Positions 4,593 to 61,808 of a stretch of DNA of 64,000 nucleotides are shown piece by piece. Position numbers and translations under genes: made by a program. Source of the stretch: Candidatus Limiplasma pullicola (GTDB lineage: Bacteria > Bacillota > Clostridia > Christensenellales > Aristaeellaceae); the NCBI GenBank assembly GCA_018710985.1, contig DVIV01000033.1, positions 1 to 64,000 on the forward strand, written 5' to 3'. Every line of letters starts with the position of its first letter. Position 1 is the first letter of the stretch. The notes under the pieces were generated by a model. The model was not told where the DNA came from. It saw only the letters and a list, made by a program, of their open reading frames with translations, and made no database searches.

Positions 4593-5410
4593 GGGCGGCG
4601 GAAAAGCCCCGCCTGACGGCGGGCGTCGGAAAAGCTCGCCGTTGGCGATCTTTTCCGACGGGGGGCGCACGTTTCCCCTGCGCCTTCGGCGCGGCCGGGG
4701 AAACGTGTAAGGAATGTTTGCGCCTAGGGGCGCAAACTCCCCGCCCGCCCGGCGGAGCCGGGCGATACGATTTCACTTGGAGGGCTGCGGCCCTCCAAAC
4801 CTCTGACGGCTGGTGCGGGCGGTTGGACCGGCGTAGCGAGCGGGGCGGTGGAACATGCCGCGTTTCTTGCGCCCTGCGGGCGCTCGAAACGCTCGCGCGG
4901 GGGCGTTGCGCACCCATGGCGCGAGCGGTGGGCGCGGGGACGCGCCTACCGCGACGGGAGCGGGCGTGCGCGGCAGGGCTTCTGCCGGGCGGTGCGCAGG
5001 AGCGTGGCCCGGCGGGGACAGCTGCGGGGTGCCGCGAGCCGCGTTTCTTGCGCCAGATGGGCGCTCGAAACGCTCGCGCGGGGGCGTTGCGCACCCATGG
5101 CGCGAGCGGTGGGCGCGGGGACGCACCTACCGCGGCGCGAGCGGGCGCGCGCGGCGGACCGCCCGGCGGCTGGTGCGGGCGCAGGGCCCGGCGAAATACG
5201 CCGCCGGGTGCGGCATGTCGCGTTTCTTGCTCCCTGCGGGCGCTCGAAACGCTCGCGCCGCCTGCGTTCGCCGCAAAGGCGGCCCATGCCACAGCGAGCG
5301 TAGGGTGGGTATGGGACCCGCCCGCAAGCGAGCGGATACCAAGAAAATACCGCGCACAGCATGGACCGCGCCCTCGAGGCGCGGGACATGCGCAGCAACT
5401 TTTTCTGGAA
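4593..5410. repeat. Hairpin island 1 (modules A-B-C-D plus three long direct repeats)
   Basis: No gene. Consecutive hairpins: A 4624-4660 (CGTCGGAAAAG pairing CTTTTCCGACG), B 4668-4707 (ACGTTTCCCC/GGGGAAACGT), C 4717-4736 (TTTGCGCC/GGCGCAAA), D1 4746-4764 (CGCCCGGC/GCCGGGCG) and D2 4778-4797 (TGGAGGGC/GCCCTCCA). Three direct repeats of about 180 bases follow, each containing hairpin G (GTTTC...GAAAC) at 4862-4890, 5043-5071 and 5222-5250. A segment near 5290-5335 matches, inverted, sequence at 63380-63420 and 63600-63660. Modules A-D recur in reverse order at 59515-59683. Confidence 0.85.
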
Positions 5411-5416
5411 AAACGG

Positions 5417-5445
5417 TTGACAAGGCGAAAAGATGGTGCTATCAT
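5417..5445 (+). promoter_or_regulatory. Promoter of the aromatic amino acid operon
   Basis: TTGACA at 5417-5422, 17-base spacer and TATCAT at 5440-5445, near consensus for the housekeeping sigma factor. The predicted transcript starts near 5452, just before the leader peptide. Confidence 0.85.
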
Positions 5446-5479
5446 TCCTCCCATCAACGCAGAAGGAGGCAGAGCCGGT

Positions 5480-5572
5480 ATGAAAGCAGCACGCATGGAC
5501 CACAGCTCCGCCTATTCCTTTACCTTTGGCTTTACGTTTATGCGTAAGGCTCTTTTGCGTTGTGCTGTGTGA
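5480..5572 (+). CDS. Phe/Tyr-rich leader peptide of the aro operon
   Basis: 30-codon open frame beginning MKAARMDHSS and containing YSFTFGFTF (one Tyr and four Phe in nine codons), ending TGA at 5570-5572. AAGGAGG at 5463-5469 sits 10 bases from the ATG. The frame is followed 20 bases later by an intrinsic terminator (5593-5622) and then aroF. This is the arrangement of a translation-coupled attenuator: when charged Phe/Tyr tRNA is scarce the ribosome would stall and terminator formation would be prevented. I could not find a strong antiterminator pairing by eye, so the mechanism is inferred from layout and codon content. Confidence 0.8.
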   Translation: MKAARMDHSSAYSFTFGFTFMRKALLRCAV

Positions 5573-5592
5573 GGTAAAAGGATGGGATTCCA

Positions 5593-5622
5593 CCCCCGCG
5601 GCCAATGCCGCGGGGGTTTTTT
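5593..5622 (+). terminator. Attenuator terminator upstream of aroF
   Basis: CCCCCGCGGC (5593-5602), 4-base loop, GCCGCGGGGG (5607-5616), then six T. A perfect 10-bp stem placed between the leader peptide stop and the aroF ribosome site, so it must be conditional for the operon to be expressed. Confidence 0.9.
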
Positions 5623-5648
5623 CATGAACGAAGGAGGCGGCGGTCCCC

Positions 5649-6671
5649 ATGATCGTGATTCTCAAGAAAAACCCCGAGGAAAAGCAGCTCAATAACCTCA
5701 TGGCCTGGCTCAAGAGCCTGAACATCGCCATTCATCCCTCCGAGGGCGCCACGCATCTGGTGCTGGGGCTGGTGGGGGACACCTCGGTGGTGGACATCGA
5801 CCTGCTTCGCGCGCTGGACATCGTCGAGGACGTCAAGCGCGTGCAGGAGCCCTACAAGAACGCCAACCGCAAGTTCCACGAGGAGGACAGCGTCATCCCC
5901 GTGGGGAACACGCAGATCGGCGGAAACGTGTTTTCCGTGATCGCCGGGCCGTGCAGCATCGAAAGCGAGGAGCAGGTCTGCCTGATCGCCACGGCGGTCA
6001 AGGCCGCGGGGGCCACGATGCTGCGCGGCGGCGCGTTCAAGCCGCGCACCTCGCCCTACGCCTTCCAGGGCCTGCGCGGGCACGGGCTGGAGCTGCTTCT
6101 GGAGGCCAGGCGGCTGACCGGCCTTCCCGTGGTTACGGAGATCATGGACCTCAGCCAGCTTCCCCTCTTTGACGAGGTGGACGTGATTCAGGTGGGCGCG
6201 CGCAACATGCAGAACTTTGAGCTTTTGAAGGAGCTGGGCCACACGGGAAAGCCCATCCTCATCAAGCGCGGGCTGGCGAATACCCTTCAGGAGCTGCTCA
6301 TGAGCGCCGAGTACGTCATGGCCGGGGGCAACGAGAAGGTCATCCTCTGCGAGCGCGGCATCCGCACCTTTGAGACGGCCACGCGAAACACCCTCGACCT
6401 CTCCGCCGTGCCCATGCTCAAAAAGCTCACCCACCTGCCGGTGATCGTGGACCCCAGCCACGCCACGGGCATCTCGTGGATGGTCAAGCCCATGGCGCTG
6501 GCCGCCACCGCCGCGGGCGCGGACGGCCTGATGATCGAGGTGCACAACGACCCGGGGCGCGCCCTGTGCGACGGCGCGCAGTCGCTGACGCCGGAGGCGT
6601 TCCGCGACGTGATGGACGGCGTGCGGGCGGTTTTGCCGCATGCCTGGCATATGCCGAAGGAGGGCGTGTGA
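5649..6671 (+). CDS. aroF: 3-deoxy-7-phosphoheptulonate (DAHP) synthase, AroF/AroA-beta type
   Basis: 340 residues. Condenses phosphoenolpyruvate and erythrose 4-phosphate, the first step of the shikimate pathway. The N-terminal ~70 residues form a ferredoxin-like regulatory domain as in Thermotoga DAHP synthase; the barrel follows with [19 protein letters not shown] and the DPSHATG region. AAGGAGG lies 11 bases before the ATG. First structural gene after the attenuator; tyrA follows after one base. Family members with this N-domain are usually feedback inhibited by Tyr or Phe (family knowledge). Confidence 0.96.
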
Positions 6672-6672
6672 C

Positions 6673-7521
6673 ATGGACATCGGCGTGGTGGGGCTGGGGC
6701 TGATCGGCGGCTCCATGGCCCGGACGATTCGGCGCAATACCCCGCATACGGTGCTGGGCACGGACACCGACGAGCAGGTGATGTACAAGGCCCGGCTGCT
6801 GGAGGCCATCGACGGCGACCTGACCGACGAGCGGCTGGGCATCTGCGACATCGTGCTTATCGCGACCTGGCCCAAGGCGGCGGTGGACTATGTGCAAAGG
6901 CACGCCGCGGCGTTCAAAAAGGGCGCGTGGGTGATCGACCTGTGCGGCGTCAAGCGCGCGGTGTGCGGGCCGCTGTTTGAGACGGCGAAGGAAAACGGCT
7001 TTGTTTTCATCGGCGGCCATCCCATGGCGGGCATCGAGTACTGGGGCTTCGACCACGCGACGGCGACGCTGTTTGACAACGCCTCCATGATCCTCACCCC
7101 GCCGCCGGGCACGGATATTCAGACGCTGTCGGACCTCAAGCACTTCTTCCGGGGCCTTGGCTTCGGGCGGGTGGTCATCACCACGCCTGAGGAGCACGAC
7201 CGGCTGATCGGCTACACCTCGCAGCTGGCGCATGTGGTGTCCAGCGCGTATGTGAAAAGCCCGGAGGCGATGAAGCACCCCGGCTTCTCGGCGGGCAGCT
7301 TCAAGGACATGACGCGCGTGGCGCGGCTGAACGAGAAGATGTGGACGGAGCTGTTTTTGCTCAACCGCGACGAGCTGGGCGCCGAGCTGGACGCGCTGAT
7401 CGGGCATCTTAAGGAGTACCGCGCGGCGCTCTCGGCGGGCGACGCGCAGGGGCTGGAAAGGCTGCTTCGCGAGGGCCGGGAGCGCAAGGAAATCGTGGAC
7501 CGCAGGGAGGATGAGCCATGA
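6673..7521 (+). CDS. tyrA: Prephenate dehydrogenase
   Basis: 282 residues. Oxidises prephenate to 4-hydroxyphenylpyruvate for tyrosine synthesis with NAD(P). N-terminal Rossmann motif [13 protein letters not shown], the GGHPMAG substrate-binding region, and a helical C-terminal domain. No chorismate mutase or ACT domain is attached, so tyrosine control must act elsewhere. The start is the ATG at 6673, two bases after the aroF stop, with GGAGGG inside the aroF end. Its stop overlaps aroB as ATGA. Confidence 0.94.
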
Positions 7522-8579
7522 GAACGGTGCAGGTGCGGGCCGGGCGGCCCTATGAGGTACACATCGGCCGGGGGCTGATGGACGCGGTGGGCGATAAAAT
7601 CGCGCAGGCGCTGGGCGGGACGTGCGCGGCGGCCATCCTGACGGATGACACCGTGGATGCGCTCTACGGCGCGAAGGTGGAGCGGGCGCTCTCGGAAAGC
7701 GGGTTTCGCGCCTGCCGCTTCGCCATGCCGCACGGCGAGGCGCACAAGACGCTGGCAACGTGGGAAAGGATGCTCGCCTTCCTCTCGGAGCAGGGCATGA
7801 CGCGCGCGGACGTGGTGGTGGCCCTGGGCGGCGGCGTGCCGGGCGACGTGGCGGGCTTCGCGGCGGCGAGCTACCAGCGCGGCGTGGCGCTCATCCAGAT
7901 TCCCACGACCTTGCTGGCCATGATCGACAGCAGCGTGGGCGGCAAGACGGGCGTGGACCTGGGGGGCCTCAAAAACCAGGTGGGGGCGTTTCATCAGCCG
8001 CGGCTGGTGCTGATCGACCCGGACGCGCTTTCCACCTTGCCCGCGGCGACGCTTTCCGACGGCGCGGCGGAGGCGGTCAAGTACGGCGTGCTGGGCGATG
8101 GGGAGCTGTTTGAGCGGCTCTCCCGCGGCGGCTGGACGGAGGACGCCGAATGGGTGATCGAGCGGTGCGTTTTCCACAAGGCGGCGCTGGTGGCCGCCGA
8201 CGAGCTCGATACCGGCAGCCGCCAGCTGCTCAACCTGGGCCACACGCTGGGGCACGCCATTGAAAAGTGCAGCGGCCTGCGCTTCTCGCACGGGCAGGCG
8301 GTGGCCGTGGGCATGATCTACGCCGCGCGCATCGCGCGGGGCATGGGCCTGTGCGGGCCGGAGGTGGAGGAGGCTATCGCCGCCGCGCTCGCAGCCAACG
8401 GCCTGCCGCTTTCCGCGCCCTACGGGGCGGCGGAGCTGGCCGCGGCGGCCATGGCGGACAAGAAGCGCGCGGGCGCGCAGATCACGCTGGTGCTGCCCCG
8501 CGAAATCGGCCGGTGCGAGCTCAGGCGCGTGCCGGCGGCGGATATGGAGAAACTTACGCGCGTGGCGGTGGGGGCATAA
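7518..8579 (+). CDS. aroB: 3-dehydroquinate synthase
   Basis: 353 residues, the usual length. Second shikimate-pathway enzyme, NAD and metal dependent. Conserved GGGVPGDVAGFAA, TTLLAMIDSSVGGKTGVD, the Zn-binding Glu in DGAAEAVKYG and the His motif LNLGHTLGHAIE are present. Translationally coupled to tyrA by a 4-base overlap. The end of the gene is partly duplicated just downstream (see 8560-8700). Confidence 0.97.
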   Translation: MRTVQVRAGRPYEVHIGRGLMDAVGDKIAQALGGTCAAAILTDDTVDALYGAKVERALSESGFRACRFAMPHGEAHKTLATWERMLAFLSEQGMTRADVVVALGGGVPGDVAGFAAASYQRGVALIQIPTTLLAMIDSSVGGKTGVDLGGLKNQVGAFHQPRLVLIDPDALSTLPAATLSDGAAEAVKYGVLGDGELFERLSRGGWTEDAEWVIERCVFHKAALVAADELDTGSRQLLNLGHTLGHAIEKCSGLRFSHGQAVAVGMIYAARIARGMGLCGPEVEEAIAAALAANGLPLSAPYGAAELAAAAMADKKRAGAQITLVLPREIGRCELRRVPAADMEKLTRVAVGA

Positions 8580-8700
8580 GGCTCCCGGCGGCGCGATGGA
8601 AAGGCCGGGCACGCGGCGGCAACGGAACCGGGGGCGCCGGCGCGCATGGCGGTGGGGCGTAAGGGCTCCCGGCGGCGGAACGGAAAAGGCCGGGGCGCCG
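8560..8700 (+). repeat. Imperfect duplication of the aroB 3' end
   Basis: The last codons and stop of aroB (CGCGTGGCGGTGGGGGCATAA, then GGCTCCCGGCGGCG) reappear about 80 bases later in diverged form (near 8641-8690), with a second in-context TAA and a similar GGAAAAGGCCGGG tail. The 155-base gap before pheA is mostly this duplication; no gene is seen in it. Confidence 0.7.
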
Positions 8701-8737
8701 GGCCCCCTGTGAATCAGACGAAAGAAGGGCGATTGTG

Positions 8738-9877
8738 ATGGAGATTCAGGAAATCAGGAAGCGGATCGACGAGGCGGACGAGCAGCTGGTGCAGGCGTTT
8801 TCCCGGCGCATGCGCGCGGCGGCGGACATCGCCGACTACAAGCGCGAGCACGGCCTGCCCGTGTGGGACCCGGCGCGCGAGCGCGAGGTGATGGCCAAAC
8901 AGACGCAGGCGGTGGACGGGGACATGGCGATGGACGTAAAATTCCTCTACAACACCATCTTTGACATCAGCCGCAGCTACCAGCAGCGCAGGCTCCATCG
9001 TGGCGGCGAGCTGGGCAACCGCATCGCCCGCGCCATCGAGGAAACGCCGAAAACCTTCCCCCGTCAGGCCGTGGTGGCCTGCCAGGGCGTGGAGGGGGCC
9101 TACAGCCAGCAGGCGTGCGACAAGCTGTTCGCCCTGCCGTCCATCATGTACTTCCGGCGCTTCGAGGGCGTGTTCCAGGCCATCGAAAGCGGGCTGTGCC
9201 GCTACGGCGTGCTGCCGATTGAAAACAGCTCCTACGGCTCGGTCACCGAGGTCTACGACCTGATGCGCCGCTACCGCTTCTCCATCGTCAGAAGCCTTCG
9301 CCTCAAGATCGACCACCGGCTCGTCGCCCGGCCCGGCGCGGCGCTCTCCGGTATCCGCGAGATCGTCAGCCACGAGCAGGCCATCGGCCAGTGCTCCGCG
9401 TTCCTCAAGACCCTCAAGGACGTGAAGATCACCGTCTGCGAGAACACCGCCATGGCCGCCCAGATGGTAAGCCAGAGCGGCCGGGGCGACATCGCCGCCA
9501 TCTCCTCGCCCGCCTGCGCGGGCCTGTACGGCCTTTGCGTGCTCAAGAGCGACATCTCCGATTCCGACAGCAACTTCACCCGCTTCATCTGCATCTCCAA
9601 AAATCTGGAGATCTACCCCGGCGCGGACAAGGTGAGCCTGATGCTCAACGTGCCCCACCGCCCCGGCGCGCTCTACGGCATGATCGCGCGCTTCGCGGCG
9701 CTGGGCCTCAACCTGACGAAGCTCGAAAGCCGGCCCATCGCGGGCACGGACTTCGAGTTCATGTTCTACTTTGATCTGGACGCCTCGGTCTACGACGAGG
9801 CCGCGCTGGGCCTTCTGTGCGAGCTGGACGAGGGCCCGGAGGCGTTCACCTACCTGGGCAGCTATTCGGAGGCCTGA
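8738..9877 (+). CDS. pheA: Chorismate mutase / prephenate dehydratase (P-protein)
   Basis: 379 residues. Bifunctional enzyme leading from chorismate to phenylpyruvate. AroQ-type chorismate mutase at about 1-85 (IRKRIDEADEQLV, IADYKREHGLPV), prephenate dehydratase at about 110-285 (VEGAYSQQA, GVLPIENSSYGSV, SNFTRFICI), and a C-terminal ACT domain with PGALYGM and ESRPIAGTDFEF, the phenylalanine-binding signatures, so feedback inhibition by Phe is expected. ATG at 8738 is preferred over GTG at 8735 because GAAGGG is 8 bases away from it. aroE follows after one base. Confidence 0.96.
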   Translation: MEIQEIRKRIDEADEQLVQAFSRRMRAAADIADYKREHGLPVWDPAREREVMAKQTQAVDGDMAMDVKFLYNTIFDISRSYQQRRLHRGGELGNRIARAIEETPKTFPRQAVVACQGVEGAYSQQACDKLFALPSIMYFRRFEGVFQAIESGLCRYGVLPIENSSYGSVTEVYDLMRRYRFSIVRSLRLKIDHRLVARPGAALSGIREIVSHEQAIGQCSAFLKTLKDVKITVCENTAMAAQMVSQSGRGDIAAISSPACAGLYGLCVLKSDISDSDSNFTRFICISKNLEIYPGADKVSLMLNVPHRPGALYGMIARFAALGLNLTKLESRPIAGTDFEFMFYFDLDASVYDEAALGLLCELDEGPEAFTYLGSYSEA

Positions 9878-9878
9878 G

Positions 9879-11114
9879 ATGCGCTGCGGACTGATCGGCG
9901 AAAGGCTGGGGCACAGCCATTCAAAAACGCTGCACGGGCTGCTGGCGGACTACCGCTACGACCTGATCGAGCTGGCGCCGGAGGAGCTGGGGGCCTTCCT
10001 GCAAAAGGGCGAATTTGACGGGCTGAACGTGACGATTCCCTACAAGCAGGCGGTGATCCCGTACCTGCGCGAGCTCAGCCCCGCGGCGCGGGCCATCGGC
10101 AGCGTCAACACCATCGTGCGCAGGCCGGACGGGACCCTCCTTGGCGACAACACCGACGCCTGGGGCCTTGGCGTGATCGCCGGGCGCGCGGGCATGGCCT
10201 TCGCCGGGAAAAAGACGCTGATTCTGGGCAGCGGCGGCACATCGCGCACGGCGCGCCATGTGGTGGAGGCGGCGGGCGGCGAGGCGGTCACGGTCTCGCG
10301 CACGGGCGAAACCAACTATGAAAACCTGGAGCGGCACGCGGACGCGGCCTACCTGATCAACGCCACGCCCGTGGGCATGTACCCGGGGGTGCAGGCCGCG
10401 CCGGTGGACCTTGAGCGGCTCCCAAACCTTCGCGGCGTGGCGGACGTGATCTACAATCCGCTGCGCACGCGGCTTATGCAGCAGGCGCGGGCGCTGGGCA
10501 TCCCCTGCGAAGGGGGGCTGGCCATGCTGGTGTATCAGGCGGTGCGGGCGTGCGAGCGCTTCACCGCCCGGCCCGTGCCCCCGGAGCGCGCGGCGCAGGC
10601 CGAGCGGGCGCTTAGGCGCGCGGTCACGGGCCTTGCGCTGGTGGGCATGCCGGGCGCGGGCAAGAGCACCGTGGGCGCGCTGGCGGCGGCGCGGCTGGGC
10701 ATGCCCTTTGTGGACCTGGACCGGGAGATCGAAAAGGCGGCGGGCATGCCCATTCCGCGCATCTTTGAAACCGAGGGCGAGGCGGGGTTCCGCCGCCGCG
10801 AGACGGAGGCGCTCAGGCGCGTTGCGCTCGTGGGCGGGCAGGTGATCGCCGCCGGCGGAGGCGTCGTCAAGCGCGCGGAAAACCGCGAGCTGTTGCGCAT
10901 GAACTGCGTGGTGGTGCACCTTACGCGGCCCATTGAGGCGCTGCCCATGGACGGGCGGCCCCTGTCGCAGGGGCGCGAGGCGCTTGCACGGCTTTGGCGC
11001 GAGCGGGCGGGACTCTACGCCGCCGCCGCGGACGCGCAGGTGGAAAACGGCGCGACGGCGGAGGCGTGCGCGCGCGAAGTGGAGGAGGCATACCATGAAG
11101 CTGTTTGTGATTAA
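9879..11114 (+). CDS. aroE-aroK: Fused shikimate dehydrogenase - shikimate kinase
   Basis: 411 residues in one uninterrupted frame. Residues ~1-245 are shikimate 5-dehydrogenase (GLIGERLGHSHSKTLH, GLNVTIPYKQAV, GSVNTIV, GDNTDAWG, the NADP site GSGGTSRTA). Residues ~249-411 are shikimate kinase with Walker A GMPGAGKST, the DLD shikimate/Mg site, FRRRE carrying the substrate Arg, and AAGGGVV. The fusion places two consecutive pathway steps in one chain; all active-site motifs of both halves look intact. The ATG at 9879 is one base after the pheA stop. The 3' end overlaps aroQ by 20 bases. Confidence 0.95.
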   Translation: MRCGLIGERLGHSHSKTLHGLLADYRYDLIELAPEELGAFLQKGEFDGLNVTIPYKQAVIPYLRELSPAARAIGSVNTIVRRPDGTLLGDNTDAWGLGVIAGRAGMAFAGKKTLILGSGGTSRTARHVVEAAGGEAVTVSRTGETNYENLERHADAAYLINATPVGMYPGVQAAPVDLERLPNLRGVADVIYNPLRTRLMQQARALGIPCEGGLAMLVYQAVRACERFTARPVPPERAAQAERALRRAVTGLALVGMPGAGKSTVGALAAARLGMPFVDLDREIEKAAGMPIPRIFETEGEAGFRRRETEALRRVALVGGQVIAAGGGVVKRAENRELLRMNCVVVHLTRPIEALPMDGRPLSQGREALARLWRERAGLYAAAADAQVENGATAEACAREVEEAYHEAVCD

Positions 11115-11526
11115 CGGGCCGAACCTGAACCTGCTGGGCGTGCGCGAGCCGGACATCTACGGCAGAAAGACCTACGCGGACCTGGTGGCCTACGTGCAGG
11201 ACGTGTGCGCGCGGGAGGGCGTGGAGGTGGAATGCTTCCAGTCCAACCACGAGGGCGCGCTGGTGGACATCATCCAGAGCGCGCTGGGCAAGGCGGACGG
11301 CATCGTGATCAACCCCGCGGCCTACACGCACACCAGCGTGGCCATCCTCGACGCGCTCAAGGCCGTCGCTTTGCCCGCCGTGGAGGTGCACCTGAGCGAC
11401 GTGGACGCCCGCGAGCCCTTCCGGCATGTGAGCTACCCGGCGATGGCCTGCATCGCGCAGGTGAAGGGGCTGGGATTTGCAGGATACGAAAAGGCCATTC
11501 TGCTGCTCAGGGAGCGGCTGCGTTGA
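11095..11526 (+). CDS. aroQ: 3-dehydroquinate dehydratase, type II
   Basis: 143 residues, typical for the dodecameric type II enzyme. NGPNLNLLGVREPDIYG (with catalytic Tyr), QSNHEGALVD, NPAAYTHTSVAI and EVHLSDVDAREPFR are conserved. Starts inside the aroE-aroK end (20-base overlap) and is the last gene of the operon; an intrinsic terminator follows at 11538-11566. aroA and aroC, needed to reach chorismate, are not in the window. Confidence 0.97.
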   Translation: MKLFVINGPNLNLLGVREPDIYGRKTYADLVAYVQDVCAREGVEVECFQSNHEGALVDIIQSALGKADGIVINPAAYTHTSVAILDALKAVALPAVEVHLSDVDAREPFRHVSYPAMACIAQVKGLGFAGYEKAILLLRERLR

Positions 11527-11537
11527 GCGCGGGGAAT

Positions 11538-13548: not shown

Positions 13549-13580
13549 CGGGACCTGTGCGCGGCGGGGAGGCAGAACCG

Positions 13581-24364: not shown

Positions 24365-24399
24365 GGCGGGTGCCTCCTTTTTGGCCTTTGGTGTGTCGA

Positions 24400-24592
24400 A
24401 AAAGTCCGCCGGCGGCGGACTCAGATTGTTGGCAAACTTTTTTCCCGGGAGGTTTGGAGGGCCGAAGCCCTCCAAAGTGGATTCGTATCGCCCGGCTTTG
24501 CCGGGCGGGCGGGGAGTTTGCGCCCCCCGGCGCAAACATTTCTTAAGCACCCGCCGGAAAAGATCGCCGCAGGCGAGCTTTTCCGGCGCGCG
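24400..24592. repeat. Hairpin island 2 (D-C-A, inverted)
   Basis: Lies between RNase J and the oxidoreductase gene. Hairpins: 24404-24420 (GTCCGCC/GGCGGAC), D2 ~24454-24475, D1 24489-24507 (CGCCCGGC/GCCGGGCG), C 24517-24536 (TTTGCGCC/GGCGCAAA), A 24553-24587 (GCCGGAAAAG/CTTTTCCGGC). Module B is absent. Module A sits 12 bases from the RNase J stop. Confidence 0.85.
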
Positions 24593-34763: not shown

Positions 34764-34803
34764 GCGTCGGAAAAGCTCGCAAGCGGTCGGCTTTTCGCCA
34801 CGC
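34764..34803 (+). repeat. Solo degenerate A-module hairpin after rpoC
   Basis: GCGTCGGAAAAG ... CTTTTCGCCACGC, a worn copy of module A, directly after the rpoC stop and before the terminator. Confidence 0.6.
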
Positions 34804-44213: not shown

Positions 44214-44979
44214 ACTGTGCGTCGCTCTTTTCTATCAAAGCTGTCGCCCGTCGGAAAAGCCCGGCTGGCGCCGATCTTTTCCGACGGGTTGCGCCGTTTC
44301 CCTCTCGCCCTCCTTCGGAGGGCTCCCGGGCGGGAAACGGCGTAAGGAATGTTTGCGCCAGGGGCGCAAACGCCCCGCCCGCCCGGCGAAGCCGGGCGAT
44401 ACGATTTCACTTGGAGGGGACGGAGGGAAGCGTCAGCCCAGTGGGCTGTTGCCACCGAAGGTGGCAAAGCGACCCGAAGGAGTCAACCGAAACGAGCGGC
44501 GGACGCGGCCAGCGGCCGTCGCGACGATTGAGGTTGCGGACCTGCGGCCCTCCAAACCTCTGACGGCTGGTGTGGGACGGAAGGCTCCGGGGCGGTTAGG
44601 GTGGGGTTGTGGTGAGGCGCGGGGGTGTTGACGAACAGCCGCGGATGTTGGCAGCGCTTTCACCGGGAAAAGGTCCCGCTCCCATCGGCGCGAGCGTTTC
44701 GAGCGCCCTTCCGCGCAAGAAACGCGGCTTGCCGCACCGCGTCGCTCGCTGTCCCGGAGCCAACCGCCCTCACCACCTGTCGGGAGGTTCGGAGGGCTCG
44801 CAGTCCCTCCGAATGCATTCCGAATCCGGCGACATGTGCGGCGGATTCGGAAGCCTTGCGTAAGCAAGGCTACCTTACGCCGTCCGCCGCCCGGCGAGCC
44901 GGCGGCAAAGCCGCCGGCGAAGTAGGCGGACGGCGCAACCTCGTCGGAAAAGATCGCCGCGGGCGAGCTTTTCCGACGC
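44214..44979. repeat. Hairpin island 3, between feoA and feoB
   Basis: No gene. A 44247-44288, B 44292-44342, C 44352-44370, D1 44381-44397, D2 arms 44411-44418 and 44541-44555 split by a ~122-base insert that contains E hairpins CAGCCCA/TGGGCTG-type at 44434-44448 and TTGCCACC/GGTGGCAA at 44449-44467. Then an inverted G hairpin near 44693-44727, CGAATCCG/CGGATTCG 44821-44849, GCCTTGC/GCAAGGC ~44853-44870, nested hairpin H 44879-44934 and a second A 44942-44978 touching the feoA stop. Confidence 0.88.
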
Positions 44980-49437: not shown

Positions 49438-49884
49438 ACCCCGCGCGGCAAGGCGGGCCTCCCGGAAAGCGCGGGGCGCGGGGGGCGTGCGCCGAAAAAG
49501 GCGCAAAGCAGCCCGCCTCCCCCGTGGGGAAGGCGGGCGCGGGCTGCTGACAAAGTGCGGGGTGCAGGGGGATCATCAGTTGCTCAATCATTCGCGCTTC
49601 CCTGACGGTCGCGCTCATGGTTTCGCTGCCCCGCTGCGGGTCGCTTTGGGCCTTCGGCCCAAGTGCCCACAGGGCACACGCTTCCCTCCGCGCCTGCCGG
49701 GGTTTGGGGCAGAGCCCCAAGCCCTTATGCCGCAGCATTTCTTGCGAGCGTTGCGAGCGCCCGTAGGGCGCAAGAAACGCGGCTCTCTCCAAAATCAGGG
49801 GTTTTTCAACGGTCTGAGCCCGCCTCCCCCGTGGGGGAGGCGGGCGCGGGATCGTCAGCCGGGCTTTTCCGGCGGGCTTTCGTT
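49438..49884. repeat. Hairpin island 4
   Basis: No gene. Hairpins: GCAGCCCGCC...GGCGGGCGCGGGCTGC at ~49508-49550; E unit ~49643-49690 (TTTGGGCC/GGCCCAA then TGCCC/GGGCA); GGGGTTTGGGGC/GCCCCAAGCCC ~49698-49722; G-like unit 49737-49777; perfect 12-bp stem CCCGCCTCCCCC/GGGGGAGGCGGG ~49828-49854; half of an A module before the glyS stop. The phrase GTTGCTCAATCATTCGCGC at ~49578 recurs at ~59133. Confidence 0.8.
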
Positions 49885-52190: not shown

Positions 52191-52193
52191 CCG

Positions 52194-53222: not shown

Positions 53223-53805
53223 CGGGCTGCTGGATGGGCGGACGCAAACATTTGGAGGATTGCCGGCGGGCTGAACACTGACGGCTGCTGGACGGGCGGG
53301 GCCTTGCGCAGGGGCGCAAACGCAGCCCCGTTGACAAACCCTTTTCGGGAGGTTTGGAGGGCCGCAGCCCTCCAAGTGAATTCGTATCGAGCGGCTTTCC
53401 CCGGTCGCTCAATCGTCGCGGCGGGCGCTGGCCGCGCCCACCGCTCGTTTCGCTCCCTCGCAAATATCGGCGTTCTGCGCGCTGGCCGCGCGCAGCCCTT
53501 GTATTTGCTCACGCCTTTAGGTCGCTTTGGTCCCTTCGGGGCCAAGTGCCCACAGGGCACACGCTTCCTTTCGGCGCACCTTCGGGTCGCTTTGCCACCT
53601 TCGGTGGCAACAGCCCACTGGGCTGACGCTTCCCTCCGGTGCCGGGCGGGCGGGGAGTTTGCGCCAAGGGCGCAAACATACCTTACGCCGGCCGCCGCCC
53701 GGCGAAGTCAACGGCGAAGCCGTTGACGTAGTAGGCGGCCGGCGCAAACCTGGCGGAAAAGATCGCCACAGGCGAGCTTTTCCGCCACACCGCAGGGAGG
53801 TCGGC
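53223..53805. repeat. Hairpin island 5, between mreB and mreC
   Basis: No gene. D2 inverted near 53352-53378; D1 split at ~53400 by an insert containing F 53462-53511 (CAAATA/TATTTG around CTGCGCGC/GCGCGCAG) and two E units 53519-53640 (TTTGGTCC/GGGGCCAA with TGCCC/GGGCA; TTTGCCACC/GGTGGCAA with CAGCCCA/TGGGCTG); then the D1 remainder, C 53659-53677, nested H 53687-53743 and A 53752-53786, 20 bases from mreC. Confidence 0.88.
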
Positions 53806-55053: not shown

Positions 55054-55056
55054 GCG

Positions 55057-55602
55057 GTGCTAAGCAAGCTGCTCAAGGTTTCGGCGCTGACGCTGCTGGC
55101 CTATCTCCTGCAGGCCACCACCGCCGAGTACCTCTCCCTGTGGGACATCGCCCCCGGCCTCGCGCTGGCCGTGATCGCCGTGGTCACCGTCGGCCTGGGG
55201 CGGAAATACACGTTTCTGATGTCCCTGACCATCGGCTACCTGCTGGAGATCATGCTGCCGATGCTGGACTATCTGGCGCTGATTCTCTATCCCGTGTGCT
55301 GCATGCTGGGCGCGCTGGCCTTCTCCGACAAGAGCGAGCGCCGCCTGGAGGAGGAGCGCGCCGCCGGCCGCCGCGCCCGGCAGCTCGACCCCCACATCCG
55401 CACCCCCCTGTGCGCGGCGCTCAGCGCCGCCGTGTTTGAGGGCGTCAACCTGATCTACGTGTACTTAAGCGGCGTGACGCTCGACAGCGGGCATTTCGGC
55501 CGGTCGCTGGTTTGCGTGCTGTACACTGCGGCCATCGCGGGGGTGATTCAGTTCCCGATCCGGGCGTGGCTGGGGGTTTACAAGCTGGCGAAGGCGCGCT
55601 GA
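55057..55602 (+). CDS. mreD: Rod-shape-determining protein MreD
   Basis: 181 residues, five or six predicted membrane segments, small MreD-like protein following mreC by 3 bases with a GTG start. Part of the elongasome membrane core with MreC, RodA and PBP2. Weak sequence conservation is normal for the family; identification rests on topology and position. Confidence 0.9.
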   Translation: MLSKLLKVSALTLLAYLLQATTAEYLSLWDIAPGLALAVIAVVTVGLGRKYTFLMSLTIGYLLEIMLPMLDYLALILYPVCCMLGALAFSDKSERRLEEERAAGRRARQLDPHIRTPLCAALSAAVFEGVNLIYVYLSGVTLDSGHFGRSLVCVLYTAAIAGVIQFPIRAWLGVYKLAKAR

Positions 55603-55605
55603 CGC

Positions 55606-55644
55606 GCGTCGGAAAAGATCGGCTGCGCCGGGCTTTTCCGACGC
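55606..55644. repeat. Solo A-module hairpin between mreD and mrdA
   Basis: GCGTCGGAAAAG ... CTTTTCCGACGC around CGGCTGCGCCGG. Same family as 4624-4660, alone in a 62-base gap. Confidence 0.9.
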
Positions 55645-55664
55645 ACCGACGAAGGAGGTGTAGT

Positions 55665-58292
55665 ATGCGCAGACGCATCAAGAACCCCGGGGACCGGCAG
55701 GGATACAACCTGGGGGCAAGGTATCTGGCGTTTCTGATCATCACGCTGGGCATGTTCGCCTACCTGCTGACGGGCGTGTTCCGGCTGCAGGTGGTGGAGA
55801 GCGAGGCGTACACCGAGGACGCCGAAAGCAGCCGCACCACCACCATCACCCTGCGCGGCAGCCGCGGCATGATCACCGACGCGGACGCGGTCATTCTGGC
55901 GCGCGACGCGGACATCTACAACGTGACCTTCTACCGCGACGCGAGCCAGAACTCCGCCGCGCAATACCGGGAGCTGACGCAGAGCATCGTGGAGACGGTG
56001 GAGATCATCGAGCGAAACGGCAACGAGCTGGACGTCGACTTCGTGATCGAGCGCGACCCGGAGACGAACGAGTGGGTGTTCAACTTCGGCAGCGGGGTGA
56101 GCGAATCGGTCCTGCAGACGCGCGAAAACCAGTGGCGCAGCAACAACTACATGACCAACCTGAGCGCTACCGGCTATCCCACGGCGGAAAGCTGCTTAAA
56201 CCAGCTCAAGAAGCGCTACAAGATCGCCAATACCCGGGAGGAGGCCGACGCCCGCAAGGCCGCCAGCTCCGACCCCACGACCTACGTTGAGGACATGGTG
56301 CTGGACGAAACCACCATGCTCAAGGTCATGGCCGTCTACTCCGAAATGCAGATGAACCTCTTTAACTCCCAGCCCATCGTGATCGCCGAGGACGTGCCCT
56401 ATGAAACGGTCATCGAGATCGAAACCCGGTCGATGACGCTGCCGGGCATGGAGATCGCCATGGGCACCAAGCGCGTCTACCCGCGCGGCACGCTGGCCTC
56501 GCAGGTGATCGGCTACATGGGCGCGATTCCCTCGACCGAAAAGTGGCTGGAGCTCGAGGAAAAGGGCTACAAGTACTCCGACACCATCGGCGTGGACGGC
56601 ATCGAGGCCTCCATGGAGGACTGGCTGACGCAAAACAGCGACCTGCGGCAGGGCTACCGCGAGGTGGAGCGCAACAGCGTGGGCAAGATCACCCGCGAGC
56701 TGAGCTACACCGAGCCCGAGGACGGCAACAACGTCAAGCTCACCATCGTGGCCAGCTATCAGCAGCAGGCCGAGCGCGCGCTGGCCGAAAACGTCGCTTC
56801 CACCCGCGCGGTGCAGGAGGGCAAGCTCATGGACGCCACCTGGCTTGAGAAAAACCGCGACGACATCTTAAGCCGCTCGTGGGAGAAATACCCCCTCTCG
56901 CTGGCCGAGCGCGCCGCCATGATGGTGGTGGACATGGAGGGCCGCGTGCTGGCCATGGCCAATTACCCGACCTTTGACCTAAACGCCCTCGTCGCCGCGG
57001 GGCCGGAGAGCCGCACCATCCTCTCCGACAGCCGGAACGTGCTGATGAACTACAACATCCACGCCCGCGGCACCCCCGGCTCCATCTTCAAGATGGTCAG
57101 CGCCCTTGGCGCGATGTTGGAGGGCGAGCTGTACGTCAACGAAACCATCTCCGACGAGGGCCGCTTCATGCTGGTCACCAACGTCGAAAGCCAGGCCCCG
57201 AAATGCTGGATCAGCGAAAGCCAGCGCTACAAGCACCAGAGCCAGACCATCATCGATGGCCTCTCCCACAGCTGCAACTACTTTTTCTACACGCTGGGCT
57301 ACCGTCTGGGCGAAACACGCCTGTACCAGTACGCCAGCGAGTTTGGCCTCACCAGCAAGACCGGCATCGACCTGCCCGGCGAGCAGCGCAGCGTCGTGGG
57401 CTGCCAGACCAGCCTCTACGACCCCGACAAGGCCATGGGCGAGGCCGATCAGGACACGGCCGTGCCGATCATCGTGTTTAACTCCATCAAGCGCCACCTG
57501 CGCAATCAGGGCGCCAGCCGCAACATCACCTACGACGACGAGCGCCTCGACCGCTGCGTCAAGCGCCTGATGGACATGGCCGTGAACACCTCCCAGAATG
57601 ACTGGCTGCTCTACATGCGCCCCATTTTGATGGAGGAACTCAACATGACGCGCGAGATGGTCTACACGCAGAGCATCATCGGCGATACGTACAACTACCT
57701 CAACGACATCAAGTGGGGCCCCTCCCAGACCGTTCAGGTCGCCATCGGGCAGTCGATCACGGTGGTCACGCCCGCCGCCGTCAGCCGCTATGTCGCGGCG
57801 CTGGGCAACGGCGGCAAGGTGTACAACCTGATGATCGTCGATTCCATCACGTCCCCTGAGGGCGAGATCGTCAGCCAGCGCGCGCCCAGCCTGTTCAACG
57901 AGTTCGAGGGCGCGGAGGAATACCTGCCCTACATCCTCGAAGGCATGAAGGGCGTTGTGGACGAGAGCGGTACCGCCGCCAAGTACTTCCGCAGCTGGGC
58001 CTATCAGGATCAGGTGTGCGCGAAAACAGGAACCGCCGAGGTTACGACCATCGACCTTGAAAACAACGCGTGGTTCGTTATGCTCGCGCCCTACGCAAGC
58101 GAGATGGTGAACGGCGTGCCCACCACGGTGACGGAGCCGGAAATCGCGGTGGTGGTGTTCATCCCCAGTGGATTCAGCGGGGGCGAAGCCAGCATGGCGG
58201 CCCGCGAATTCGTGGGCTGGTACATGGACCAGAAAACCCTGCGCAACAATCAAAACAGCGTGTTCCCGGGCGGCAACCAGCTGGCCCCGTGA
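55665..58292 (+). CDS. mrdA: Penicillin-binding protein 2 (elongation transpeptidase)
   Basis: 875 residues. Class B PBP: membrane segment ~18-40, long dimerisation/pedestal region (~60-400, larger than in E. coli PBP2), transpeptidase with Ser473 in SIFK, SCN at about 536 and KTG at about 787. Crosslinks peptidoglycan during elongation. GAAGGAGGTG precedes the ATG. Lies between mreD and minD, the usual Firmicute order. Confidence 0.95.
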   Translation: MRRRIKNPGDRQGYNLGARYLAFLIITLGMFAYLLTGVFRLQVVESEAYTEDAESSRTTTITLRGSRGMITDADAVILARDADIYNVTFYRDASQNSAAQYRELTQSIVETVEIIERNGNELDVDFVIERDPETNEWVFNFGSGVSESVLQTRENQWRSNNYMTNLSATGYPTAESCLNQLKKRYKIANTREEADARKAASSDPTTYVEDMVLDETTMLKVMAVYSEMQMNLFNSQPIVIAEDVPYETVIEIETRSMTLPGMEIAMGTKRVYPRGTLASQVIGYMGAIPSTEKWLELEEKGYKYSDTIGVDGIEASMEDWLTQNSDLRQGYREVERNSVGKITRELSYTEPEDGNNVKLTIVASYQQQAERALAENVASTRAVQEGKLMDATWLEKNRDDILSRSWEKYPLSLAERAAMMVVDMEGRVLAMANYPTFDLNALVAAGPESRTILSDSRNVLMNYNIHARGTPGSIFKMVSALGAMLEGELYVNETISDEGRFMLVTNVESQAPKCWISESQRYKHQSQTIIDGLSHSCNYFFYTLGYRLGETRLYQYASEFGLTSKTGIDLPGEQRSVVGCQTSLYDPDKAMGEADQDTAVPIIVFNSIKRHLRNQGASRNITYDDERLDRCVKRLMDMAVNTSQNDWLLYMRPILMEELNMTREMVYTQSIIGDTYNYLNDIKWGPSQTVQVAIGQSITVVTPAAVSRYVAALGNGGKVYNLMIVDSITSPEGEIVSQRAPSLFNEFEGAEEYLPYILEGMKGVVDESGTAAKYFRSWAYQDQVCAKTGTAEVTTIDLENNAWFVMLAPYASEMVNGVPTTVTEPEIAVVVFIPSGFSGGEASMAAREFVGWYMDQKTLRNNQNSVFPGGNQLAP

Positions 58293-58313
58293 CGCGCATG
58301 GGAGAGATGCAAC

Positions 58314-59105
58314 GTGAGTCAGGCATGGACGGTGCTTTCGGGCAAGGGCGGCGTGGGCAAGAGCACGGTGAGCGCGGCGCTGGGCATGGCGCTGGCGCGG
58401 CGGCGGCTGCCATGCTGTCTGGTGGACGCGGATCTGGGCCTTCGCAGCCTTGACATGCTGATGAACCTGCACAGCCGGGTGGTCTACGACGTGCTGGACG
58501 TGGCGCGCAGGGACTGCAAGCTGAAATACGCGCTGATCCGCCACACGGCGGACGGCGCGCTATGGCTGCTGCCCGCGGCGCAGGAGGGTCAGGGCGGCGA
58601 CGCGGACCGCGAGGACATGGAGCGGATTGTGAAGAAGCTGAAAAAGCGGATGGCGTACGTGCTGCTGGACGCGCCGGCGGGCCTGGGGCCGGGGGTGCGG
58701 GCGCTGTTGCCCGCCTCGGACCACGCGCTGGTGGTGACCACGCCCGACGACGTGGCCATGCGCGACGCGGAGCGGGCCATTGCGCTGGCGGAGGCCGCGG
58801 GGCTGCCCCGGCCGATGCTGGTGGTGAACCGGGTACGGCCCGACATGGTGGCGCGCGGGGAGATGTACAGCCCGCAGGCGGTGGCCTCCACGCTGGACGT
58901 GCCGCTGCTGGGATTTGTGCCGGAGGACCGGGCGGTGCTGGCGGCGGCGGCGAAGCAGGAGAGCTTCATGGATACGGATGGACCGGCGAAGCAGGCCATG
59001 GAGCGGATTGCCCAGCGGTTTCTGGGCGAGTTTGTGCCGATGCCGACGGTGGAGAGGAAGCGGCGCTGGTGGGAGCGGGGAAGGAATGTGGGCATAGGGG
59101 TGTGA
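58314..59105 (+). CDS. minD: MinD/ParA-type ATPase
   Basis: 263 residues. Deviant Walker A SGKGGVGKST, VDADLGLRSLD and LLDAPAGLGPGV. Septum-site protein by position after mrdA; the C-terminus RRWWERGRNVGIGV could be a membrane-targeting amphipathic helix. minC and minE, usually flanking, are absent: mrdA precedes directly and hairpin island 6 follows. GTG start. Confidence 0.85.
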   Translation: MSQAWTVLSGKGGVGKSTVSAALGMALARRRLPCCLVDADLGLRSLDMLMNLHSRVVYDVLDVARRDCKLKYALIRHTADGALWLLPAAQEGQGGDADREDMERIVKKLKKRMAYVLLDAPAGLGPGVRALLPASDHALVVTTPDDVAMRDAERAIALAEAAGLPRPMLVVNRVRPDMVARGEMYSPQAVASTLDVPLLGFVPEDRAVLAAAAKQESFMDTDGPAKQAMERIAQRFLGEFVPMPTVERKRRWWERGRNVGIGV

Positions 59106-59681
59106 AAAGAGCGGGGTGCAGGGGCCTCCCCGGTTGCTCAATCATTCGCGCTTCCCTGACGGCATGCCGCTTCCGTCTATGCCCGCTCAATCGTCGCGGA
59201 GGGCGCGGGGCGCGCCCACCGCTCGTTTCGCGGTCCGCCTTCGGGTCGCTTTGCGCTTCGCGCAACAGCCCACCGGGCTGACGCTTCCCTTCGGCGCGCT
59301 CATGGTTTCGCTGCCCTCGCAAATATCGGCGTTCTGCGCGCTGGCCGCGCGCAGCCCTTGTATTTGCTCACGTCTGCGGGTCGCTTTGCGCTACGCGCAA
59401 CAGCCCACAGGGCTGACGCTTCCCTCCGGCGCACCTTCGGGTCGCTTTGGGCCTTCGGCCCAAGTGCCCACAGGGTACACGCTTCCCTTCGCGCCACTGG
59501 GCTGGCGCTTCCCTCCGGTGCCGGGCGGGCGGGGAGTTTGCGCCCCCAGGCGCAAACATTCCTTACACGTTTCCCCGGCCGCGCCGAAGGCGCAGGGGAA
59601 ACGTGCGCCCCCCGGCGGAAAAGATCGCCAACGGCGAGCTTTTCCGACGCCCGCCGTCAGGCGGGGCTTTTCCGCCGCCCC
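59106..59681. repeat. Hairpin island 6
   Basis: No gene. Three E units (~59232-59290, 59378-59430, 59441-59490), F 59321-59370 identical in design to 53462-53511, then D1 remainder ~59518, C 59538-59557, B ~59567-59604 and A 59614-59650 in inverted order relative to island 1, ending at the stop codon of the phage tape measure gene. The E-D junction CTTCCCTCCGGTGCCGGG is shared with island 5. Confidence 0.88.
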
Positions 59682-61808
59682 CTACAGCATGACAGCCAGC
59701 GCCTCGTTGACCTCTTCCATCCGCCGCGCCACCTGCGCCGGGGTCTCGACGGGCTGGTTGAATTCGACGGTCTGGTTCACCGTGACCGCCGGGGCCGCCT
59801 GCGGCGTCTGGCGGCTGTCGTAGAAGGCGTCCGCCGCCGACTGGGCCAGCGCCGCCATATCGGCCTGCGCCTGGGTCAGACGGGCGCTGAAGTCCTCAAA
59901 CCACGCGGCCACGTCGCCCACGCCGCGCGCGAAGCCGTCCAGCAGCCTTTCGCCCAGCGTCTGCCCCAGCGCGTCGTACTCCGGCGCGTACTGCTCAAGA
60001 AGCGAGAGCAGCTCGTCCTGCGACTGGCTCAAAATCAGCTTCTCCGCCTCCGCCCGCAGCGCCGCCTCCTGCATGCGCTCGGCGTAGGCCGCCTCGACGG
60101 CCTCCTGCTCGCGGTCCAGCGCCTCCAGCTGGCTGTCCGCCGCCTGCTCGATCTGCTCGATCTGCGCGCGCAGGGCCTCCTTCTGATCCTCCAGATCAAG
60201 GCGCGCCAGGCGTTCCTCGCGGCTCTCCAGCGCCTGGTCCAGCTGCTGCTGGAGCTTGGCGCGGTTGAAATCGTCCTGCTCGTAGGCGATCTGCTGGCGG
60301 AGCTTCTCGATCTTGCGCAGTTCCTCCGCGTCCTGCTTCTCGCGGTCCTGCGCCTTGGCGAGCTGGTCCAGCGCCGCGATCTGGTCCTCCACGGCTCTCA
60401 CGCTGTCGTCCCGCCACGTCTGCCACGCCTCGCGGCTCTGCTCCAGCCGGGCGGTTTCGCCGTCCAGCATGGCCTGATAGCGGTTTTCCAGCGCGTCGAT
60501 GACGCTGTCGGACAGTTGATCGAGGCTCTCGGCGTCCCGCTCGCGGATCTCCTGCTTGAGATCATAGACCTTTTCCTCCCAGTCCATGATCTCCTCGGCG
60601 TTGAGCTGATGCTTCTGCCGCAGGGCCTCCAGCTGCGCCAGCTCCTCCTCGAAGGTGATCTCGTTCATGTGGCGGCGGTGCTCGATGAGGCGGTAGTCCG
60701 CCTCGATGGCCTCCTGACGCCGCCGCTCGGCCTCCTCCGCCGCGCGCCGGGCCGCCTCGGCCGCGTCGGCCTCGTCATCCCCGCGCCTGCTGCCGCCGCC
60801 GCCTCCGCCGCCGCGCGAGCCGCCGCCGCCCCCCGCGCTGATGCCCGCCTGCCCCATCAGGGAAAGCAGCGTGGTGATCAGCGCGATCACCGCCTGAATG
60901 GCCGACAGCGGCTGGCTCACGTCCACGCCCATGGCCGCCTGGATCATGAGCGCCTGCTCCGTCTGCCGGGCCTGCGAAAGCATGCCCTGCAAGGTCGATA
61001 CGATGCCCGCGCCCTCGCGCTGCACCCCGTCGCCCAGCGCGTCCACCTGCCTGTCCGCGGCGGCGGCGGCCTCGTCCATGGCCTCAAGGCTCCCGGAGCC
61101 CTTGTCGACGTTCACGCCCAGCTTCCTGGCCGCGCCGCTCAGGCTGTCGAATTCCTTTTCGACGTTCCGGCCGCTCTTTCGCGCGTCGTCGTAGGCGCGT
61201 TTGGCGTCCCGGTAGGCGTCGATGTGCCGCTGGATGCCGCTGAGGCTGCGCGCCTGCGATTCCAGGCCCCGCAGCGCCTGCGCCATGTCGGAGGCCGCGT
61301 CCGCGTATTCCGCCGCGCCCGCCGTCGCCCCGGCCTGCGCCTGCGCAAGCGGCGAGAGCGCCTCCGCCGGGCCCGGCAGCGCTTCGGAGAGGCCCTCCGC
61401 GCCCTCCGCCGCCGCCTGAAACGTCTCCAGCAGGGCCGTCAGCCCTTCGCCCACGGCCGGCAGCGCCGTTCCCGCCGCCTCGCCCAGCGACGTGAGGTCG
61501 CCCGCCAGCGCGCCCTCCGGGCCCAGCAGCGCGCCCCACGCCTCGCGCAGGGCCTGCCCCTCCTCCCCGGCGGGCACGGCGGCGGCCAGCGAAAGCCCGG
61601 CGCGCACCGCCTCCGCCACCTGCGAAAACGCGCCCTTCGCCGCCTCCGCCAGCTCCGCCCAGAGCGCCTCCTGCGGCGCGGCCGCATCGCCCGCCGCGGC
61701 GGCGGCCTCCCCGGCAAAGCGGCGCAGGTCCGACAGCACCGCGTCCAGCTCGCCGTCCGCCTCCTCGACGGCCACGCGAACCCGTACCACCAGTTCATCC
61801 AGCGTCAA
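59682..61808 (-). CDS. Phage tail tape measure protein
   Basis: 708 residues. N-terminal ~100-residue region, Ala-rich helical stretches, a hydrophobic segment near 295-315, a poly-Gly stretch ~323-342, a long charged coiled coil ~350-620, and the C-terminal VTVNQTVEFNQPVETPAQVARRM typical of tape measure proteins of Firmicute siphophages. It sets tail length. TTG start overlaps the frameshifted chaperone stop (TTGA). No distal tail or baseplate gene follows. Confidence 0.85.
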   Translation of the reverse strand: MTLDELVVRVRVAVEEADGELDAVLSDLRRFAGEAAAAAGDAAAPQEALWAELAEAAKGAFSQVAEAVRAGLSLAAAVPAGEEGQALREAWGALLGPEGALAGDLTSLGEAAGTALPAVGEGLTALLETFQAAAEGAEGLSEALPGPAEALSPLAQAQAGATAGAAEYADAASDMAQALRGLESQARSLSGIQRHIDAYRDAKRAYDDARKSGRNVEKEFDSLSGAARKLGVNVDKGSGSLEAMDEAAAAADRQVDALGDGVQREGAGIVSTLQGMLSQARQTEQALMIQAAMGVDVSQPLSAIQAVIALITTLLSLMGQAGISAGGGGGSRGGGGGGGSRRGDDEADAAEAARRAAEEAERRRQEAIEADYRLIEHRRHMNEITFEEELAQLEALRQKHQLNAEEIMDWEEKVYDLKQEIRERDAESLDQLSDSVIDALENRYQAMLDGETARLEQSREAWQTWRDDSVRAVEDQIAALDQLAKAQDREKQDAEELRKIEKLRQQIAYEQDDFNRAKLQQQLDQALESREERLARLDLEDQKEALRAQIEQIEQAADSQLEALDREQEAVEAAYAERMQEAALRAEAEKLILSQSQDELLSLLEQYAPEYDALGQTLGERLLDGFARGVGDVAAWFEDFSARLTQAQADMAALAQSAADAFYDSRQTPQAAPAVTVNQTVEFNQPVETPAQVARRMEEVNEALAVML

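What the first reader, a model, noticed from the sequence alone, without database searches (positions are those of the whole stretch)
4593..59683. A family of modular hairpins builds noncoding islands between genes
The same stem-loop modules recur at 4600-4800, 24400-24592, 34764-34803, 44214-44979, 49438-49884, 53223-53805, 55606-55644 and 59106-59683. Module A (CGTCGGAAAAG/CTTTTCCGACG), B (ACGTTTCCCC), C (TTTGCGCC/GGCGCAAA), D (CCCGGC and TGGAGGG stems), E, F, G and H appear in ordered strings that can be inverted as a whole (A-B-C-D at 4600; D-C-B-A at 59515). No transposase is present. This looks like a composite, non-autonomous repeat system rather than classic REP, BOX or a single MITE.
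Basis: seen in the sequence. Interest (0 to 1): 0.85.

Follow-up and report, generated by a model that had tools for sequence, protein, structure and literature searches.

The report
Hairpin islands are terminator-seeking mini-transposons
The repeated hairpin islands are best read as small, gene-free jumping elements that land in hairpin stop signals at the ends of genes and leave a copy of the whole hairpin on each side, a habit they share with a common family of bacterial jumping genes.

Summary
The hairpin modules are real (longest distant exact inverted repeat 67 nt; 16-18 in five shuffles) and occur genome-wide (at least 48 matches). Best reading: not a new repeat class but a swarm of miniature transposons (MITEs) moved by IS1182-family transposases, with nested hairpin cargo and decayed copies. 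Of 56 element ends, 34 exceed the window's 99.99th percentile on a matrix built only from IS1182 ends. 13 of 28 copies examined have a 25-38 nt direct duplication of a whole hairpin; window island 49544-49816 does too. At mnmE the closest sister genome has one hairpin and no element. The own genome holds IS1182 fragments at contig ends, two of them ending at the same hairpin. Of 80 named IS1182 loci, 48 carry duplications of 14-52 nt whose length follows the target palindrome (r = 0.97). The related IS1272 is reported to remove its target hairpin; whole stem-loop duplication was drawn there only as an alternative pathway (PMC5678879). Four of five window places tested show no duplication. Mobility and termination are inferred, not tested.

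The parts
4593..4803 (+). MITE-derived island A-B-C-D-E directly after the spoIVA stop codon; ends decayed, no target duplication seen
4621..4664 (+). module A hairpin; in intact copies elsewhere its counterpart is the left-end hairpin, which aligns with the left end of an IS1182 element
4669..4706 (+). module B hairpin (ACGTTTCCCC..GGGGAAACGT)
4717..4736 (+). module C hairpin (TTTGCGCC..GGCGCAAA)
4747..4763 (+). module D hairpin (GCCCGGC..GCCGGGC), site of nested cargo in other copies
4777..4798 (+). module E hairpin (TTGGAGGGC..GCCCTCCAA), second site of nested cargo
24422..24592 (-). MITE copy next to the 3' end of an RNase J gene; the end at 24422 scores 19.7 with the IS1182-end matrix, the other end is decayed
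24399..24421 (.). hairpin AAAAAGTCCGCCGGCGGCGGACT next to that end; 24391-24421 also matches a MITE left end, so possibly one element inserted into an older one
34764..34803 (.). solitary module A hairpin directly after rpoC, not seen at that place in sister G015; target duplication not tested
44249..44979 (+). decayed composite island upstream of feoB, with nested cargo in module E; no duplication seen
49510..49543 (.). left copy of the duplicated target hairpin (34 nt)
49544..49816 (.). 273-nt element with IS1182-like ends (scores 14.4 and 19.7) between a MarR-like gene and the 3' end of a glycine--tRNA ligase gene; filled with cargo hairpins
49817..49850 (.). right copy of the duplicated target hairpin (34 nt, 1 mismatch)
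53223..53805 (-). decayed composite island after mreB; remnant end near 53324 (score only 3.4); target duplication not tested
55606..55644 (.). solitary module A hairpin between two ORFs; target duplication not tested
59106..59681 (-). island A-B-C-D plus nested cargo between convergent ORFs; 162 nt 99% complementary to 4592-4753; no duplication seen

Best explanation
The islands are intact and decayed copies of a family of non-autonomous IS1182-type MITEs. An IS1182 transposase acting in trans recognises the CAG..TGTC..AAAA ends and joins them to the two feet of a stem-loop in the target, usually a gene-end terminator. Repair then leaves one whole stem-loop on each side, so the length of the target duplication is set by the palindrome and is not fixed. 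The near stem often loses its U-tract while the far stem keeps it, and the element carries a terminator-like hairpin of its own (module A), so landing should do little harm. Other hairpins, and perhaps other MITEs, insert into the element's own hairpins, which builds ordered modular strings. Shown by sequence: ends, duplications, an empty site, the transposase family, the length relation. Inferred: trans-mobilisation, attack on an extruded hairpin or cruciform, preserved termination.
For: 13 of 28 own-genome copies have hairpin duplications of 25-38 nt with at most 2 mismatches; in the 12 clearest, direct alignment scored 20-34 against at most 11 with other copies' right flanks and exceeded the inverted alignment. 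34 of 56 ends (19 of 26 in the 13 duplicated copies) exceed the window's 99.99th percentile on an IS1182-only matrix. A MITE left end and the IS left end align at score 13 against a maximum of 10 in 1000 shuffles, and both fold as hairpins. An own IS1182 type has the same 27-nt hairpin at its two ends, on contigs C33 and C30. Empty site after mnmE in sister G015, and a different 161-nt element after mnmE in G005 with a perfect 47-nt hairpin duplication. 48 of 80 named IS1182 loci have duplications of 14-52 nt; palindrome and duplication borders agree within 2 nt in 44 of 48; 0 of 780 mismatched flank pairs reached 14 nt. Far copies keep a U-tract in 41 and 46 of 48 (two directions), near copies in 11 and 24. 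The 4 genomes with 27 or more MITE matches all carry PF13751, 2 of the other 13 do (p = 0.006).
Against: No duplication at 4 of the 5 window places tested; three listed places were not tested. 15 of 28 copies lack a clean duplication. Only fragments of the transposase, at contig ends, were found in the own assembly. The IS type whose ends fit best (L152 type) was found closely only in G000, G005 and G008, not in MITE-rich G013, and G015 and G016 gave only distant (38-47%) hits. With a threshold of one MITE match the genus association vanishes (p = 0.30), kinship is not corrected for, and the DNA query misses other MITE types (G005). Copies L022 and L027 carry each other's hairpin. Of the 80 named IS1182 loci, 18 had under 14 nt and 14 no end pair. 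IS1182-family elements with 4-bp repeats are in print (PMC3196728, PMC11578231; passages). 19 window positions exceed matrix score 8 against 5-11 in shuffles, so a score alone is weak. Own-genome U-tracts are weak (far copy 6 of 13 each way).
Confidence: 0.8

Rival explanations
1. REP/BIME-like palindromes spread by a RAYT (Y1, IS200/IS605-related) transposase.
For: Small G+C-rich palindromes between genes, clustered.
Against: No PF01797 match in the own genome, while 5 of 14 control genomes ring. IS1182-type ends and long target duplications.
Confidence: 0.03
2. Stem-loop replacing transposition as reported for IS1272, in which the target hairpin is removed and no duplication arises.
For: Same transposase family and same kind of target (PMC5678879, PMC4923244). 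Some copies show no duplication.
Against: Whole hairpins are duplicated in 13 of 28 MITE copies and 48 of 80 IS1182 loci.
Confidence: 0.06
3. The hairpins are host-made terminators or other RNA structures that spread by recombination, not transposition.
For: Position at gene ends, strong folds, solitary module A hairpins, high identity of the 4592 and 59520 copies.
Against: Terminal repeats, target duplications and an empty site; no Rfam family at gathering score in the window.
Confidence: 0.08
4. Assembly artefact of a repeat-rich, fragmented genome.
For: At least 15 of 132 contig ends lie in the element (my count); two copies have swapped hairpins.
Against: The 13 duplications lie inside contigs; C. 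carboxidivorans P7, titled complete genome, shows duplications at 9 of 9 IS1182 copies fetched; rpoC on the window's contig is found once and is 99% identical to that of sister G015.
Confidence: 0.03

Closest known systems
IS1272 / TnSha1 (IS1182 family, staphylococci; PMC5678879, PMC4923244)
   Same: IS1182-family transposase; targets inverted repeats, several confirmed as terminators by RNA-seq; no primary sequence consensus in the target
   Different: Reported to remove part or all of the target stem-loop with no duplication; here the whole stem-loop is duplicated, which PMC5678879 drew as pathway b, an alternative to the one it proposes for IS1272
MITEPye1 of Paracoccus yeei (PMC11578231, passages read)
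   Same: MITE with ends like IS1182-family elements, intergenic, folds into stem-loops
   Different: 4-bp direct repeats and 1-3 copies per chromosome; no hairpin duplication mentioned in the passages read; here 25-38 nt hairpin duplications, about 45 places, nested modules
BOX, RUP and SPRITE clusters of pneumococcus (PMC10969869, passages read)
   Same: Small elements clustered and inserted into one another, some terminator-like
   Different: Different families and hosts; a terminator hairpin as duplicated target is not described in the passages read
REP/BIME and REPIN
   Same: Intergenic palindromes in clusters
   Different: No Y1 transposase match in this genome; IS1182-type ends

Membership tests
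MITE | short element with terminal inverted repeats | tested here: met
   CAGCTTGTCGAAAAAG / CAGACTGTCAAAAAAC and variants in the better copies; decayed in the four window copies
MITE | target site duplication | tested here: met
   13 of 28 copies, 25-38 nt; window 49510-49850
MITE | ends matched to an autonomous element | tested here: met
   IS1182-only matrix, 34 of 56 ends above the 99.99th percentile, and left-end alignment
MITE | moved in trans by the partner transposase | not testable with these tools
   only co-occurrence of element and transposase
IS1182 family (partner element) | transposase matches the family model above cut-off | tested here: met
   NF033551 at 415-439 bits for L137, L138, L152, cut-off 270; the own-genome fragments reach 235 and 74 bits only
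IS1272-type stem-loop replacement | target stem-loop lost, no duplication | tested here: not met
   whole stem-loop duplicated in 13 of 28 MITE copies and 48 of 80 IS loci
REP/BIME/REPIN | Y1 (RAYT) transposase in the genome (defining feature recalled) | tested here: not met
   PF01797: 0 matches
Group IIC intron (targets terminators, recalled) | group II intron RNA in the islands | tested here: not met
   no Rfam match at gathering score in the window; reverse transcriptase not searched

The most novel reading that the evidence does not exclude
This IS1182 branch senses the shape of its target, not its sequence: the transposase joins the element to the two feet of an extruded hairpin or cruciform, so the stagger of its cuts equals the palindrome length (14-52 nt here). 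Terminators thereby become self-restoring landing sites, and a MITE swarm has exploited this to build self-nesting hairpin islands.
Probability: 0.45. Interest if true: 0.78.

Novelty: new variant of a known kind. Interest (0 to 1): 0.62.

Why it matters
A DDE transposase whose target duplication has no fixed length but follows the target's secondary structure is unusual, and the collected sites (48 loci, some in complete genomes) make cruciform-directed integration directly testable. It would also explain how a small element can reach dozens of copies at gene ends at little cost, why contigs of such genomes break there, and how modular hairpin islands arise without a dedicated repeat system.

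Tried and rejected
Rfam gave nothing at gathering score in the window. RAYT/IS200 was set aside after a null search. I suspected that contig C6 was foreign because its exact module A flavour matches nowhere else; set aside because rpoC on it is found once and is 99% identical to that of G015, the genome whose MnmE is also closest (96%). L140 and L136 (IS copies with different hairpins on the two sides) show no duplication and were not explained. G013 IS1182 copies show no clear hairpin at the end read. The borders of the nested cargo were not resolved well enough to call a loop duplication. In one search the border search was free by 4 nt each side and over several end pairs, whereas the control kept the chosen end pair and allowed only the 4 nt, so the control is somewhat weaker; the borders were also free by several nt. 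One search misses some true pairs (L168, the same insertion as L138, whose duplication is visible). My first window coordinates for the right hairpin were off by one, corrected. On checking the draft I found that the empty site in G015 does not have both neighbouring genes intact: mnmE is orthologous, and 126 nt beyond the hairpin align at 91%, but only 29 residues at the end of the convergent gene match clearly.

That I found no printed description of whole stem-loop duplication as an observed outcome for IS1182 elements or their MITEs rests on searches of an open-access library. I recall, without a source seen here, that ISfinder lists variable direct repeats for IS1182, so the bare fact may be known there; two reviews that I tried were not held.
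Full report
OBSERVATION. The repeats exist at all the coordinates given and far exceed chance (67 nt against 16-18 in five shuffles). A query from the first island gives 49 matches in the 2.78-Mb, 66-contig genome of the window, and a query from a complete copy elsewhere gives 48. Both are lower bounds (40 of 100 and 40 of 76 candidates scored). I merge the rows by eye to 40 places, and adds 5, so about 45. At least 15 of the 132 contig ends lie within 25 nt of a copy (counted), which explains part of the fragmentation.

ANATOMY. Copies outside the window are on the whole better preserved than those inside. The standard element is 164-174 nt (nine copies): left end CAGCTTGTCGAAAAAG, hairpin A, then hairpins C, D and E, right end TTTTTTGACAGTCTG. 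A second type of about 200 nt has hairpins A, B, two others and E between the same kinds of ends (L061, L062, L063). Longer copies (L055, 291 nt; L050, 434 nt) carry cargo hairpins inside the D hairpin; others carry cargo in E (L056, L042). Cargo-bearing L055 and L050 have target duplications of their own, so the composite seems to move as a unit. The window's islands combine the two types plus cargo.

TARGET DUPLICATION. I examined 28 of about 45 places; the 17 left out are cut off by a contig end. In 12 of the 28 the left flank aligns directly with its own right flank at scores 20-34, while the best right flank of another copy gives at most 11, and direct exceeds inverted alignment in all 12. 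Exact duplications were then read in 13 of the 14 copies re-examined: 25-38 nt, 0-2 mismatches, each with an inverted repeat by eye. The other 15 of 28: two carry each other's hairpin (L022 and L027), two lack a full left flank (L026 and L042), four are window copies with decayed ends (L001, L002, L003, L046), and seven are truncated or unclear (L004, L053, L056, L057, L059, L060, L061; L056 has a 16-nt repeat at its ends). A copy outside this set, on C53, also lies between two identical hairpins (L079). In the window, 49544-49816 is bounded by IS1182-like ends and by AGCCCGCCTCCCCCGTGGGG(A/G)AGGCGGGCGCGGG on both sides, 1 mismatch in 34.

EMPTY SITE. After mnmE the own genome has hairpin, element, hairpin. 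The closest sister, G015 (MnmE 96% identical), has one hairpin and no element; beyond it 126 nt align at 91% with the own sequence beyond the second hairpin. Of the convergent gene only 29 residues at its end match clearly, so the site is orthologous on the mnmE side and partly so on the other. G005 has a different 161-nt element after its mnmE, with a perfect 47-nt hairpin duplication: an independent hit. In the other 14 of the 17 genomes read I saw, by eye, no such element in the 260 nt printed.

PARTNER. PF13751 transposase fragments lie at the ends of contigs C33 and C40, further IS1182 pieces on C32, C39, C16, C30 and C57. On C32, C33, C39 and C40 the end of the IS follows within 2 nt on a hairpin. 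C33 and C30 carry the two ends of one IS type, both next to the same hairpin CGGAGCGCTTCTGGAGGAAGCGCTCCT, consistent with one insertion. The left end of this IS is a terminator-like hairpin that aligns with a MITE left end (score 13, maximum of 1000 shuffles 10). Full-length relatives in the taxonomic family match the IS1182 model NF033551 above its cut-off; of five copies with both ends and both flanks in view, three show hairpin duplication (L137, L138, L152) and two do not (L136, L140). In the genus, all 4 genomes with 27 or more MITE matches have PF13751, against 2 of the other 13 (Fisher p = 0.006; at 4 or more matches p = 0.005; at 1 or more p = 0.30). This is not corrected for kinship. 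The IS type with the best-fitting ends was found closely (76% identity or more) only in G000, G005 and G008, with distant hits in G015 and G016 and none in G013, so which IS1182 type drives each genome's MITEs is open.

GENERALITY. A scan of named genomes gave 80 IS1182 loci, the best 80 of 572, several from the same genomes (nine from Clostridium carboxidivorans P7). 66 had an end pair, 48 had a duplication of at least 14 nt, 18 had less, 14 had no end pair. Median length 22.5, range 14-52 nt. The best inverted repeat found in the right flank without using the duplication length coincides with the duplication within 2 nt at both borders in 44 of 48, and lengths correlate at 0.97. None of 780 mismatched flank pairs reached 14 nt. 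A matrix built from the 35 distinct ends of these copies, without any MITE, puts 34 of 56 ends of the 28 MITE copies above the window's 99.99th percentile of 9; 23 of the 56 score 15 or more.

HOW IT MAY WORK. In the 48 IS loci the far hairpin keeps a U-tract in 41 (rightward) and 46 (leftward), the near one in 11 and 24, so the cut tends to fall between stem and U-tract and a terminator-like hairpin remains beyond the element for each neighbour. In the G+C-rich own genome U-tracts are weaker (far 6 of 13 each way, near 3 and 0). Module A may itself terminate transcription; this is inferred from its fold and its A and T runs only. The geometry fits pathway b in PMC5678879 (abstract and first part of the discussion read): joining of the element at the 5' feet of both stem-loops of a cruciform duplicates the whole stem-loop. 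That paper proposes removal of the stem-loop for IS1272, and PMC4923244 (passages) reports deletion of the hairpin and terminators as targets. MITEPye1 (PMC11578231, passages) is a MITE with IS1182-like ends and 4-bp repeats, and PMC3196728 (passages) lists an IS1182 element with 4-bp repeats in two of three copies, so not every branch of the family does this.

HOST. 

OPEN. Why the exact module A of the window matches only on contig C6, where the cargo hairpins come from, and whether solitary module A hairpins are remnants or minimal elements.

Noticed in passing
contig C6 (window numbering): 4628, 24556, 44253, 44946, 53755, 55611, 59617, 70238: The exact palindrome GGAAAAGNTCG..CTTTTCC is found 8 times on this 72-kb contig and nowhere else in the genome; local spread or gene conversion is possible. 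One such palindrome was seen in sister G015 (L119).
   Followed up: partly
L022 (C47 end), L027 (C51), L010 (C53): Copies carry each other's target hairpins, which suggests recombination between copies or chimeric assembly.
   Followed up: partly
4815-5258: Three imperfect tandem units of about 180 nt with a palindrome CCGCGTTTCTTGCGCC..GGGCGCTCGAAACGC that also recurs elsewhere in the window.
   Followed up: no
63704-63866: TATATCCTAGGATATA-like palindromes repeated at 46-nt spacing.
   Followed up: no
63339-63434 and 63574-63669: 96-nt direct repeat, 96% identical, also related in inverted form to 5269-5360.
   Followed up: no
L270 (G005:C51) about 1496-4097: A 2.6-kb stretch containing an IS1182 gene, with the same hairpin on both sides: a possible larger composite.
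   Followed up: no
4590-4592 and 59682-59684: Both copies of the 162-nt inverted island start directly at a TAG stop codon.
   Followed up: no
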